Below, in pieces: positions 41,785-46,511 of a stretch of DNA of 64,000 bases. The stretch is taken from assembly GCA_022497155.1 (NCBI GenBank), contig MU385714.1, forward strand, positions 992,001 to 1,056,000, written 5' to 3'. The stretch's first letter is position 1. Each line of letters starts with the position of its first letter. Made by a program: the position numbers and the translations under genes. Origin of the DNA: Whalleya microplaca. Its lineage: Eukaryota > Ascomycota > Sordariomycetes > Xylariales > Xylariaceae. The notes beneath the pieces were generated by a model, which was not told where the DNA came from, searched no databases, and was given only the letters and a program-made list of their open reading frames with translations.

Positions 41785-44700
41785 ATGGAACCACCCTTGA
41801 ATCCGTCTTATCCTGCGGGAGACAAAAGCGTAAAGGCTATCATCTGTTGGTGCCCTGACAGCCTTGACAGCCCTTCCGAGGCATATGCTAACCCTACAAA
41901 GCTTTCTGCCATGACCTGCAGAAACAGTTGCCTAGAAAGGACGGCAGAGTAGAGCTGCAAAATCTGACGGACGAATTAGAGAACCGGATACATGCTATCA
42001 AGGCCTACTTTCTTAAGTCCCCGGGCTCCTACCGTCATAAGCAGCTCGATGCCGCCGGCACTGATCTTTGGAATTGGTGTACCCGTATCAAGCGTCAAGA
42101 TGACATTGGCGTATCGCCCACGAAGCCCAAATTCCTGACCTTTGTTCGGGTATATGCGTTTCTAATTCTTGCGTTAGCGCAATGGGGCGATCATAATACG
42201 CCAGGAGATCTGATACGGCTGGAAAAACTGGCTATCAAAGCCGGCAGATCTTGTATTGGCATGTTGCATCTCGATTCACTAGTCTTGTAGCAATGCAGAA
42301 CTTATTAACGCCCGCATAGGAGACGGCGAGCTGGAGTTTGCGCCTCTGGTTATGCAGAAAGCCGCCGAGTACAACGGACTTCTGCAGAACCTGCAAGAGA
42401 AGCTCCCAAAAGAGGAGTCAGATGCCCGTAAAAGACTCGAAGCCGAGTATCTCACCCTTCGTCTCGCACTGGCAAGTCGCATATTATTACCATTCCCCCA
42501 CGCCTTGCTAACAACGCATGAAGGCCTGGAAGGAAGACCGTCTTGACGTCGCCGATCATCTCTACGAAAAGGTGCAAAGTTCCAAACAGAGCATAGATTC
42601 AATATCAGCAGAGGCTCTAGCAGATACGCTATTCGAGATCGGGAAAGGCTTGATAGAGAAGAAAGATTACACATTGGCGGTGAAATGGCTGGAGAGGGCT
42701 TACGAGACTATCAATAATCAAAGCCTTGAGCAACTGTCAAGGGAGGCTCTCGAATTGAGACTGGCAATCTCCCAGGCGCTTGTCCGGGCGTATCTGGGCA
42801 TCGGCACCACGGAAGGTTACGAGAAAGCCGAAAACCATGTCGGTTACATTGAGTCTGGACTTGGGGATAAACTCCTCGTCCTTCTACTCCGGTTGGAGAT
42901 CCTTCAGAGCTCTGCGGCCGAAGTGTTTGATAGCAGCGCGTATGCTGACATCCTCCGACGGATGATTAGGAGCGTAGATATCTCGGAGTCCAACTTCAAC
43001 CTCACAATACATCATATACGCAAGCTAAACGATAAGAGTCCTACTATCGCGTCCTCAGTTCTCGACGATTATATAATATCAAGAGTGTTGCCGGCGCAAC
43101 ATGAAGAATGGGTCGAGCGAGCCGTTGTTCTTCGAACTCATATGGCGATGACACATAGGGATACACAAGAAACAATTCAGGGGCTTGTACTGATGTTCGA
43201 CAAAGTCGAGAGCAGCCTGCCAAAGCCATTACCAGCTGCTGCTGTCCTTGCCGTGCAAACAGTAAGTCAGCCAGACGATCCTTACGAGCACAAGACTGAC
43301 CTGGTCTAGTTAATATGGAAGAGAATCGATGCTTCCTTCAACCAAAGACAGCTGGATGTCGCAGAGGAATGGTGTTATCTGGCCATGCATCCAGCCCTCC
43401 AACATTCCAGTCCAGCGAACACAGCCAAGATTGCCAGGTAGGTTTGCCCCTATGTATTAGGTCACAAAGTGCTGACCCAACTAGAAAACTCCTTCAATGT
43501 ACTCTTGAAAGGAATAACCTGGAAAGTGCAACAGAAATTTTCCGAGCGATGAACGAACAAGCTAAACGTGAGCCCAAGACGCTGTATCTAGCCTACAAAC
43601 TGGCACTCAGGAGTCGAGATCGAGATATGGCTTCCGAGTGCTTGAGGCATATCACCGAGGCCCCTTCCAACGACTTCAGATACCTATATGCATGTTGCAT
43701 AGATGCACAACAAGCAGAAGACAAGAGGTGTGCGATTGAAGCATTGCGTCATTTATTCAAGAAGTACGAATTCAATTCCCCTGGACCTATCCATTTGCCC
43801 GCCTTGCTTCGTGTTATCATACGCCTAGAGGTATCACTTTTAGACGAGGAAGGGCGGCCTGACGTTGATCACCATGCGTTGGTAGAGGATCTCTGCCAGG
43901 TATTTGAAGGTGGTAAGTTTTCCCAGAGTTGGCAATCATTCAAGACGTCAAGGGCGTACTAAGTCGTTTAGTTGTCACCACGGTGCAAAGAGATCCGCGC
44001 AACGACCAAGGAAATAAATTATTTACACTAGAAGAACTGGATTGGTTTTCCAAGAACGCCTACAATATAGGCTTGAAGAATGTCCAGAATTGGCGTCTTG
44101 AGCAGATTATTCGACTTTTCCAATGTTGCCTTACGATTATCGCCTACTACCCCCAAGACATTCCAGATGGTGCCTTTAAAGATTTATCGTTGCGAGGGAT
44201 GTTTTGCAATTTTCTAGTCGCCACGGCGCGTATTGCTTTGGCCCGGTCTGAAGATAATGTCGAAAATCAACTGCAACACTACTTATTGATGCGTAACAAC
44301 ATCAAAAGCTTTGATGCCGAATTGGAATCGCGGCTGGGAACTTTAGATGAAATGTCCAAGTACGACCTCCAAGACAAACTTGCGACCCTCATGATCTTCG
44401 ACTTCGAAGGGGCAGTCTGTCTCAAGTCATAGGATGACTTGATCGAGACCGTACTTAGGGCCAAGATTTGCAGAAACATAACAACCTACCAGGCGATGGC
44501 GGATTGTATCCTCCGATCACAATGTGTGCCTGGACAAGGTACGATCCTAGTCGCGATGTAATCCATGAGTTGGCTGACCTGGCTATAGTCCTTTACACTA
44601 CCTTACGCAAGATTATTAACGAGATACACTCCCTTGACCATTTTGATCTGGAAAAACTTGCGAAGTATATGCGATGCCTACTGAAGGCCACACTTTCTTC

Positions 44701-45022
44701 GGAACCCGAATATCCCCTGAAGATTATCGAGGAAACTTCCACACTGGTGAAGCAACAAATAGGGGTAAGTCTATCCTACTGAAGAAAAAACGTTCTATGA
44801 CTAATAACTATGTAGAAGAAGGAGCTATTTCCGCCTCTAGAGCTGGAATGGTTTATAACGACCGCATTCAATCACGGTGTTGAGCTGTTTGGGGCTAATG
44901 AGGATGAACTCAGCAAGAGGTGGATTGCACATGCGTTTACGTTGGCGCATTACCACCAGGATGGCGGCGATTTAGAACGAGAGCTCCAAAAGAGGCATAC
45001 AAATCTCAAGTGGGATTCATGA
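41785..45022 (+). CDS. Meiotic ZMM protein SPO22/ZIP4, with one in-frame TAG
   Basis: Nine exons: 41785-41845, 41902-42258, 42320-42471, 42524-43261, 43310-43437, 43485-43912, 43972-44538, 44589-44764 and 44816-45022. All phases close and the reading is 938 codons including the terminal TGA, the usual size for this family. The start MEPPLNPSYPAGDKSVKAII joins SFCHDLQKQLPRKD after intron 1. TPR-like helical repeats fill the protein (for example AVKWLERAYETINNQSLEQL). The C-terminus LELEWFITTAFNHGVELFG with ERWIAHA-like KRWIAHAFTLAHYH is typical of Spo22. Codon 775 is TAG (44430-44432) where Trp is expected (KS-stop-DDLIETVL). It lies in a hairpin loop (see the separate entry). Introns 2 (42259-42319) and 3 (42472-42523) are GC-AG. 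Spo22/Zip4 organises crossover-promoting ZMM proteins on meiotic chromosomes. Without recoding, the product stops at 774 aa and loses ~163 residues. Confidence 0.9.
42259..42319 (+). other. GC-AG intron 2 of SPO22
   Basis: Donor G|GCATGT, acceptor GCATAG, with ATTAAC before the acceptor as branch site. It joins GRSCI to GDGELEFAPL in frame. The nearby GT donor at 42253 would create a stop with either plausible acceptor. Confidence 0.75.
42472..42523 (+). other. GC-AG intron 3 of SPO22
   Basis: Donor G|GCAAGT, which is the consensus for GC-AG introns, with branch GCTAAC and acceptor GAAG. It joins LRLAL to AWKEDRLDV in frame. Confidence 0.85.
44415..44449 (+). promoter_or_regulatory. RNA hairpin presenting the in-frame UAG of SPO22
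   Basis: Perfect 8-bp stem TCAAGTCA (44422-44429) with TGACTTGA (44435-44442), closing a 5-nt loop TAGGA (44430-44434). An outer 4-bp stem GTCT (44415-44418) with AGAC (44446-44449) is separated from it by a 3x3 internal loop. The A of TAG (44431) is loop position 2 and follows T. Hairpin-loop position and a U at -1 are the known preferences of fungal sexual-stage A-to-I editing. The structure is read directly from sequence; the editing role is inference. Confidence 0.7.
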
Positions 45023-45695: not shown

Positions 45696-46222
45696 ATGGT
45701 AAAAGACAAGCAAACTGTCATCGAGTAAGTCCTAGAAGATAAGGAACACAGAAATATGTCTAATGTCCAGCTAATCACCATATATGAACCAACAGGGAGT
45801 TTAACGAGATCGTCAACATGTCGGCCTCCGACCTCGAGAGTTGGCTCAAGGGGGAGAGCTCTGAGTCTGCGGGCTGGAGCAAGGACGACGGCTCGGCAGA
45901 GACGATTGGGCACGAGAGGTAACTTACAACATACATATGTGTTTCCTCCCCTCATCGTTTTCACCCTTGATTTCTGCTTCAGAGCTCGCTGCTAACGGAG
46001 AACACTTTGCGCTCCCACAGTGGACGTAAAATTATCGAAATCCTCAAGAAGAACCCGCGCAAGGACCCGGAGAAATACGAGCAGGACGACGTAGACCATA
46101 TGCGGCGCGTCGTCGCGTATTGCAAGCGCCATCTCGCGCAGGAGGAGAAGGCGAAGCGGGATCCTGATAGCAAGAGCGCGAGGAGCTTGAAGAATTGGGG
46201 GCATGATCCGAGTAAAGCTTAG
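45696..46222 (+). CDS. DUF3140-family small protein
   Basis: Three exons: 45696-45724, 45796-45918 and 46021-46222; 117 aa. Donors GTAAGT and GTAACT with acceptors CAACAG and CCACAG keep phase. The protein reads EEFNEIVNMSASDLESWL, then KIIEILKKNPRKDPEKYEQD, HMRRVVAYCKRHLAQEEKAK and SLKNWGHDPSKA, the expected order for DUF3140. The family is small and soluble, found in fungi and bacteria, and sometimes annotated as DNA-binding; its role is not established. No signal peptide or membrane segment. Confidence 0.82.
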
Positions 46223-46303: not shown

Positions 46304-46323
46304 GGGGGGGGGGGGGGGGGGGG
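46304..46323. repeat. Poly-G run (20)
   Basis: Uninterrupted run of 20 G just before the degraded duplicate sequence and the gap. Confidence 0.95.
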
Positions 46324-46428
46324 AATGGAAATTATAAAATTAACAGGATAGAAAGTTTTGTAACCAAAATTAAAAAAAACAATATTAAAAAAAAAGAAAA
46401 CCCAGTAATTTAGAAAAATAAGCATTTA

Positions 46429-46438
46429 NNNNNNNNNN
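46429..46438. other. Assembly gap (10 N), probably an unmerged overlap
   Basis: Ten N. The block left of the gap (46325-46428) and the block right of the C run (46512 onward) align position by position: both begin TGGAAATTAT and share CAGGA, AAGTTT, GTA-CC, AACCCAG, AATTT and AGCAT at the same spacing, with many differences where the left copy has A. This suggests one locus assembled twice across a difficult homopolymer. Confidence 0.8.
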
Positions 46439-46482
<44 letters not shown>

Positions 46483-46511
46483 CCCCCCCCCCCCGCCCCC
46501 CCCCCCCCCCC
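46439..46511. repeat. Poly-C tract (73 nt)
   Basis: C run with two isolated G bases immediately after the N gap. The length is likely unreliable. Confidence 0.9.

What the first reader, a model, noticed from the sequence alone, without database searches (positions are those of the whole stretch)
44415..44449. In-frame UAG in meiotic SPO22/ZIP4 lies in a perfect hairpin loop: candidate A-to-I stop-recoding site
Seen: the nine-exon SPO22 model closes in every phase, but codon 775 is TAG (44430-44432). The frame continues with 163 more family-like residues to the proper C-terminus, and the natural reading at the stop is Trp (TGG). The TAG sits in the 5-nt loop TAGGA of a perfect 8-bp stem (TCAAGTCA / TGACTTGA), extended by an outer 4-bp stem. 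A specified 8-bp stem has a chance of 1 in 65,536 per placement. The A follows T. Known: Sordariomycetes (Fusarium, Neurospora, Sordaria) edit A to I in mRNA during sexual development, preferring hairpin loops and U at -1; stop codons UAG become UGG in genes that look like pseudogenes. Inference: this meiosis gene is kept off, or truncated, except in fruiting bodies, where editing restores W775. I know of no report of this exact site.
Basis: partly seen in the sequence, partly recalled or inferred. Interest (0 to 1): 0.92.

Follow-up and report, generated by a model that had tools for sequence, protein, structure and literature searches.

The report
Conserved editable stop in SPO22/ZIP4
A fungal meiosis gene carries a stop signal in its middle that cells probably rewrite in the RNA during sex; this type of switch is known, but here it sits at a new spot found in many members of one order of fungi, while other orders appear to have a similar stop elsewhere in the same gene.

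Summary
SPO22/ZIP4 has an in-frame TAG at 44430-44432, codon 775 of an ortholog-guided nine-exon model, in the loop of a perfect hairpin. The genome is evidently Whalleya microplaca, Xylariales. Sexual-stage A-to-I recoding of UAG to UGG is well supported indirectly; I had no RNA data.

Of 89 Xylariales SPO22 annotations, 20 end at this codon, 41 cut it out, 15 have Trp, 11 do not cover it and 2 have another residue. Most covered rows of other orders have Trp; the 24 Colletotrichum rows have Tyr, Thr or His. Sequence after the stop is conserved like that before it. The same genome has an in-frame TAG at what looks like the published PUK1 editing position, another in a DNA methyltransferase, and an AME1-family gene with "MV" near the editing-type position.

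The mechanism is known: Fusarium graminearum SPO22 is one of 69 PUK1-like stop-corrected genes (PMC4817773). Fusarium annotations point to a different Trp (W662 here) and Colletotrichum annotations to a third column. This is a new site of a known kind; what is new is its spread in Xylariales and the apparent recurrence in one meiotic gene.

The parts
41785..41845 (+). SPO22/ZIP4 exon 1
   Evidence: ortholog-guided model, (matches IKSIISFCHDLQKQL of relatives)
41902..42258 (+). exon 2 (followed by GC-AG intron 42259-42319)
   Evidence: gives KAGRSCIGDGELEFAPLVMQ, close to P0001
42320..42471 (+). exon 3 (followed by GC-AG intron 42472-42523)
42524..43261 (+). exon 4, Pfam SPO22 domain
   Evidence: PF08631 E 2.3e-65
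43310..43437 (+). exon 5
43485..43912 (+). exon 6
43972..44538 (+). exon 7, holds the in-frame TAG; missing from the deposited W. microplaca protein P0002
44091..44093 (+). TGG codon W662: column at which 9 Hypocreales annotations end; the F. graminearum annotation FGSG_01563 lacks a stretch containing it
44430..44432 (+). premature stop TAG, codon 775; predicted edited A is 44431
44415..44449 (+). hairpin: outer stem 44415-44418/44446-44449, inner stem 44422-44429/44435-44442, loop 44430-44434
44589..44764 (+). exon 8; codon 824 (His, 44627-44629) is the column at which 4 Colletotrichum annotations end
44816..45022 (+). exon 9 with the final stop TGA

Best explanation
Codon 775 of SPO22/ZIP4 is a conserved premature-stop-correction site. 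Shown: TAG in the genome where most covered ascomycete relatives outside Xylariales have Trp, in a stable hairpin loop with U before the A, in an otherwise intact gene found once in the genome, with a stop or annotation break at the same codon in 61 of 89 Xylariales rows. Inferred: in vegetative cells translation ends at residue 774 and the last 163 residues (W775 plus 162) are missing. In fruiting bodies the tRNA deaminase pair Tad2-Tad3, activated by an AME1-type cofactor, turns A44431 into inosine, UAG is read as UGG (Trp), and full-length ZIP4 is made for meiosis.
For: Codon-775 column (query column 760), rows: Xylariales 89: 20 end there, 41 cut it out, 15 Trp, 11 not covered, 1 Tyr, 1 His. 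Trp in Hypocreales 100 of 111, Sordariales 26 of 43 (15 not covered), Leotiomycetes 12 of 12, other classes 16 of 17. In the 30-tip clade holding the window none has Trp: window, 13 ends, 10 cut, 6 not covered. 22 of 41 cuts remove exactly 39 nt ending at this codon, implying a codon ending AG, so TAG (inference). After the stop: nearest relative P0001 84% identity before, 94% after; post/pre ratio 1.10 in 16 Xylariales with a cut and 1.10 in 14 with Trp (the 20 that end there cannot be tested). Hairpin. -1 U, +1 G, +2 G, +3 A are preferred in F. graminearum. The genome has D-TAG-TGG-S in a CBK1/NDR-like kinase, like the published N. crassa PUK1 UAGUGG site, and an in-frame TAG in a C5 DNA methyltransferase; in both the A is in a predicted loop. 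One DUF726 paralog has MV one residue off the spacing reported for Ame1. F. graminearum SPO22 has UAG-to-UGG editing.
Against: No RNA evidence from this species; one search for editing with Xylariales listed a single paper, not opened, on F. graminearum transcription factors. -2 A and +4 U are disfavoured. For relatives I saw only proteins, so their stop codon is inferred. By RNAfold the loop is only moderately unusual (44 of 1626 TAGs as stable). 15 Xylariales rows carry Trp. Weak in-frame splice pairs that would remove the TAG exist in exon 7. Tad2 and Tad3 were not individually identified.
Confidence: 0.86

Rival explanations
1. The TAG lies in an intron and the stretch is spliced out, always or alternatively.
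For: 41 of 89 Xylariales annotations remove the column, 22 of them with a 39-nt 'intron' ending at it and P0001 with 51 nt. In exon 7 four in-frame pairs with a weak donor (4 of 6 positions) would remove the TAG: 44360 to 44458 or 44473, 44415 to 44465 (51 nt) or 44492; the donor at 44360, GTACGA, is the same hexamer as that of intron 7. FgBUD14 shows both splicing and editing of one stop (PMC11156358).
Against: The removed residues (FDFEGAxCLKS...) are conserved in Trp-bearing relatives. 39 nt is shorter than the introns of this gene (47-92 nt in the model; 47-61 nt in the corrected model, lengths by hand). 5 of the 8 introns of the model have donors matching 5 or 6 of 6 positions. Liu 2016 describes such introns as annotation errors.
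Confidence: 0.06
2. Degraded gene, assembly error or strain-specific nonsense mutation.
For: Single nonsense codon in one assembly.
Against: Same codon affected in many Xylariales rows, downstream sequence conserved, otherwise intact exons and one SPO22 locus found.
Confidence: 0.02
3. Ribosomal readthrough of UAG, or a functional short isoform with no recoding.
For: A truncated product would keep the SPO22 domain; readthrough needs only a leaky stop.
Against: Conservation after the stop argues against short form only. The replaced residue is Trp, one transition from UAG and what editing gives; readthrough of UAG usually inserts other residues (recalled).
Confidence: 0.05

Closest known systems
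FGRRES_01563 (F. graminearum SPO22 ortholog), PUK1-like stop-correction gene, Liu et al. 2016 PMC4817773
   Same: Same gene, UAG-to-UGG editing in perithecia, stop hidden by a false annotated intron (passages).
   Different: The protein FGSG_01563 (P0163) has Trp at the codon-775 column and lacks 43 columns around W662, so its stop appears to be at a different Trp, 113 codons upstream if at W662. The F. graminearum coordinate was not read.
PUK1 / NCU03242 stop editing (PMC4817773)
   Same: Mechanism: UAG in a coding exon corrected to Trp in sexual tissue; the window's genome has a D-TAG-TGG-S site that looks equivalent.
   Different: Different gene; editing was demonstrated there, only predicted here.
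CHE1 TA437G, F. graminearum (PMC11169179)
   Same: Stop-correction site conserved among related species, in a predicted loop, with several kinds of annotation error (passages).
   Different: Reported for closely related Fusarium species and edited in hyphae; the SPO22 site is seen widely in one order.

Membership tests
Fungal A-to-I premature-stop-correction (PSC) site | In-frame UAG in the genome where UGG restores the family residue | tested here: met
   TAG at codon 775; column is Trp in 181 of 211 aligned residues from 311 proteins
Fungal A-to-I premature-stop-correction (PSC) site | U at -1 | tested here: met
   preference from PMC9600606
Fungal A-to-I premature-stop-correction (PSC) site | Preferred bases at -2, +1 to +4 | tested here: inconclusive
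   +1 G, +2 G, +3 A preferred; -2 A and +4 U depleted
Fungal A-to-I premature-stop-correction (PSC) site | A in a hairpin loop | tested here: met
   P unpaired 1.00 in three window sizes; 9-bp stem
Fungal A-to-I premature-stop-correction (PSC) site | Coding sequence after the stop under selection | tested here: met
   protein identity before and after the stop; no codon-level test was possible
Fungal A-to-I premature-stop-correction (PSC) site | Editing machinery in the genome (Tad2, Tad3, Ame1 with MV) | tested here: inconclusive
   4 DUF726 loci, one with MV offset by one residue from the reported spacing; 11 deaminase-domain hits, Tad2/Tad3 not assigned
Fungal A-to-I premature-stop-correction (PSC) site | A-to-G in RNA, specific to sexual tissue | not testable with these tools
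   no RNA data
SPO22/ZIP4 family | Pfam PF08631 match | tested here: met
   E 2.3e-65, 221.2 bits against a cut-off of 27.5
SPO22/ZIP4 family | Role in meiotic synapsis | not testable with these tools
   from yeast, as cited in PMC4817773

The most novel reading that the evidence does not exclude
The premature stop in SPO22 is a selected sexual-stage gate rather than a tolerated defect. It arose early in Xylariales at codon 775 and persisted, with occasional return to Trp, while Hypocreales and Glomerellales independently placed stops at other Trp columns (662 and 824) of the same gene. What is selected would be that an editable stop exists in this meiotic gene, not where it sits.
Probability: 0.5. 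Interest if true: 0.8.

Novelty: new member of a known kind. Interest (0 to 1): 0.62.

Why it matters
It would extend stop-correcting RNA editing to Xylariales and give a site seen across much of that order. Recurrent stops at different Trp codons of one meiotic gene would be a natural test of whether such editing is adaptive: a harmless accident should not recur in the same gene in three orders. It also warns that automated annotation in these fungi can truncate or cut meiosis genes.

Tried and rejected
Rejected or set low: intron over the TAG, pseudogene or assembly error, readthrough or short isoform (see rivals). On checking I found weak in-frame splice pairs in exon 7 that I had not considered; I raised the intron rival from 0.04 to 0.06 and lowered my explanation from 0.88 to 0.86.

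My first introns 1 and 2 were wrong; the query used them. Columns use that numbering (codon 760 there = codon 775; add 15 after intron 2).

Kinase matches with a TAG inside: 14 of 143; I read 10 of these 14. By eye most look like ordinary splice junctions. Two have TAG within continuous homologous sequence: L020 (Trp position, PUK1-like) and the second TAG of L015, at a column that is not Trp in a similar kinase (L022). The other 4 were not read.

A scan for long frames split by one stop in the window gave 3 TAG, 2 TAA and 2 TGA cases, no excess of TAG; it could not list codon 775, whose frame runs only about 42 codons further before a stop in the intron.

Not available: DNA of relatives, RNA. 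Papers not held: Qi 2024, Liu 2017. Ten paper searches listed no title or abstract start reporting the Xylariales or Colletotrichum site; most listed papers were not opened. One search (short kinase piece against solved structures) found nothing; with a better piece did.

Full report
What is there. The TAG at 44430-44432 lies in exon 7 of a SPO22/ZIP4 gene, the only SPO22 locus found in the genome. My first model put it at codon 760. Relatives read like IKSIISFCHDLQKQL and KAGRSCIxDGELxFA where my introns 1 and 2 had cut residues. The CDS is 2814 nt with 162 residues after the stop.

Which organism. The protein P0002, named Whalleya microplaca, is 99-100% identical over the parts aligned, and its contig length, 1,374,102, equals that of the window's contig. 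The order is Xylariales. The deposited protein passes from exon 6 to exon 8 and omits exon 7.

The hairpin. The stem is 8 bp with a 5-nt loop, or 9 bp with triloop AGG; the A is unpaired (P = 1.00) in three window sizes. Among 1626 TAGs in the window this is the only one with a perfect Watson-Crick stem of 8 bp or more; among 50,000 synonymous recodings 0.38% reach it. RNAfold on 61 nt is less striking: 452 of 1626 TAGs have the A in some loop, 24 with 8 pairs or more, 44 in a loop at an energy as low as here; of 5000 recodings, 1908, 76 and 214. So the hairpin is unusual, but far less than 1 in 65,536. Context: -2 A, -1 U, +1 G, +2 G, +3 A, +4 U; four of six are preferred in F. graminearum (section 6 of PMC9600606).

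Relatives. Three protein searches (each scored only the roughly 8000 candidates sharing most words) gave 311 SPO22 proteins, P0001-P0311. Rows are proteins, not species; some species have several. Eight rows without a usable name were set aside; P0017, also unnamed, and P0053, named Lasiodiplodia mahajangana by its source, were counted as Xylariales and fall inside that order on the tree. At the codon-775 column: Xylariales 89: 20 end there, 41 cut it out, 15 Trp, 11 not covered, 1 Tyr, 1 His. Hypocreales 111: 100 Trp, 10 not covered, 1 cut. Sordariales 43: 26 Trp, 15 not covered, 1 Phe, 1 Leu. Leotiomycetes 12: 12 Trp. Other classes 17: 16 Trp, 1 Phe. Diaporthales 5: 4 Trp, 1 Tyr. Glomerellales 24: 11 Tyr, 11 Thr, 2 His. 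Coniochaetales and Microascales one Trp each. Set-aside rows 8: 6 Trp, 2 not covered. Only proteins were seen, not DNA.

What the cuts mean. Of the 41 Xylariales cuts, 22 remove exactly 39 nt and resume at codon 776. An intron ending there must end in AG, and a codon worth removing that ends in AG is TAG (inference). 39 nt is shorter than the gene's own introns. Liu 2016 (PMC4817773, passages) and the CHE1 paper (PMC11169179, passages) describe false introns of this kind around edited stops. Against this, exon 7 of the window does offer four in-frame splice pairs with a weak donor that would remove the TAG, one of 51 nt like the cut in P0001, so splicing is unlikely but not excluded.

History. 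On a tree of 102 rows (89 Xylariales, the window and 12 rows of other orders; quick method, the stop's own columns left out) stop-or-cut against Trp needs 8 changes, 5 if cut rows are left out. The 30-tip clade with the window has no Trp: window, 13 ends, 10 cuts, 6 not covered. The four Monosporascus rows (cuts) branch outside it. Apiospora, Seiridium, Truncatella and Neoarthrinium rows have Trp, though P0057, which ends at the stop, falls beside them; the rows named Xylaria and allies are mixed. I read this as an early gain with some returns to Trp, but parsimony counts cannot tell gain from loss. On the wider tree of 275 rows (37 proteins dropped: the 8 set aside and 29 with poor coverage) the three columns need 7 changes (775), 20 (662) and 8 (824), or 4, 7 and 3 counting ends against Trp only; the Hypocreales pattern is thus patchy.

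Selection after the stop. Nearest relative P0001: 84% identity before (model residues 193-645), 94% after. Mean post/pre ratio: 1.10 in 16 Xylariales with a cut, 1.10 in 14 with Trp, 0.90 in 23 Sordariales, 0.94 in 66 Hypocreales, 0.91 in 11 Leotiomycetes, 0.73 in 18 Glomerellales. Rows lacking coverage were left out, among them all that end at the stop.

The same gene, other codons. Of the 311 proteins 46 end early (before query column 880): 20 at 775, 9 Hypocreales just before W662, 4 Colletotrichum just before 824, and 13 with unmatched tails of 2 to 48 residues. Trp is the commonest residue at all three columns. The three columns were chosen after seeing the ends, and the 9 Hypocreales ends were recognised by their last residues (NAYNIGVTKCHV and the like), which Trp-bearing Hypocreales continue with Trp. 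At 662, Hypocreales 111: 53 Trp, 40 cut, 9 end, 8 not covered, 1 Ala. At 824, Glomerellales 24: 10 Trp, 4 end, 4 cut, 2 His, 2 Thr, 2 not covered. F. graminearum FGSG_01563 (P0163) lacks 43 columns including 662 and has Trp at 775. Liu 2016 lists its gene, FGRRES_01563, as SPO22 with UAG-to-UGG editing. I infer that the Fusarium stop is at 662; the supplementary table was not read.

Is the editing system there? Of 143 kinase-domain matches 14 have a TAG inside; I read 10. L020 reads ...EYDARCD-TAG-TGG-SVGVILYE. It is closest to CBK1/NDR kinases, and the TAG lies in kinase subdomain IX (motif recalled), the subdomain Liu 2016 names for PUK1; N. crassa's ortholog has UAGUGG there. I take it as the PUK1 ortholog by motif and position, without a tree. 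L015 also has a TAG in continuous sequence, not at a Trp position. One of five DNA-methylase matches, L028, has an in-frame TAG (NLST*GVPQPRKR) with domain matches on both sides; the RIP methyltransferase RID is on Liu's list, but L028's identity as RID was not tested. In L020 and L028 the A is in a predicted loop (P unpaired 0.78 to 1.00 by window size). Four DUF726 loci exist; one (L027) has MV 30 and 29 residues before the GYSLG Ser. The residue numbers in PMC11087585 (passages) put MV 31 and 30 before that Ser, so it is off by one; the Asp (+58) and His (+98) spacings fit L027 but also a second paralog.

Verdict. The site is very probably a real stop-correction site, untested at RNA level. 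The mechanism and even the gene are known; the codon, its spread in Xylariales and the apparent recurrence at three columns I did not find in the listings of ten paper searches. Papers: PMC11156358 read in full; PMC4817773, PMC11169179, PMC11087585, PMC5496914 and PMC7306014 as passages; PMC9600606 as passages and section 6.

Noticed in passing
L020, genome C7:970986 (minus strand): CBK1/NDR-like kinase with in-frame TAG followed by TGG in subdomain IX; probable PUK1 ortholog with the same kind of stop as N. crassa.
   Followed up: partly
L028:1954-1956, genome C19:507511: C5 DNA methyltransferase, apparently one exon, with in-frame TAG inside the domain (NLST*GVPQPRKR), A in a predicted loop; possibly RID.
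   Followed up: partly
L015, genome C41:215300-215671: Kinase-like sequence with two TAGs, the second in continuous homologous sequence at a position that is not Trp in the similar L022; decayed copy or intron not resolved.
   Followed up: no
Colletotrichum proteins P0097, P0117, P0291, P0292: SPO22 annotations end at VIVNEI just before a Trp column, and four others cut it: a candidate third stop-editing site.
   Followed up: partly
P0128, P0130, P0131, P0160, P0168: Fusarium oxysporum proteins keep Trp at the 662 column where several other Fusarium annotations end or are cut; its lack of a known sexual stage (recalled) makes this worth testing.
   Followed up: no
window 10302-10300, minus strand: A TAG splits a long open frame (270 codons before, 239 after) of a low-complexity protein; no Pfam match; intron, gene end or another editable stop not resolved.
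   Followed up: partly
window 45971-46222: Next gene downstream is DUF3140 (PF11338); a few relatives' annotations fuse SPO22 with it and many with a PF24990 regulator gene.
   Followed up: no
window 46309-46500: Long G run, an N stretch and a long C run: probably a poor stretch of assembly.
   Followed up: no
L003, genome C53:5911-6978: DUF726 paralog with one TAG and one TAA inside the matched domain, probably an intron.
   Followed up: no
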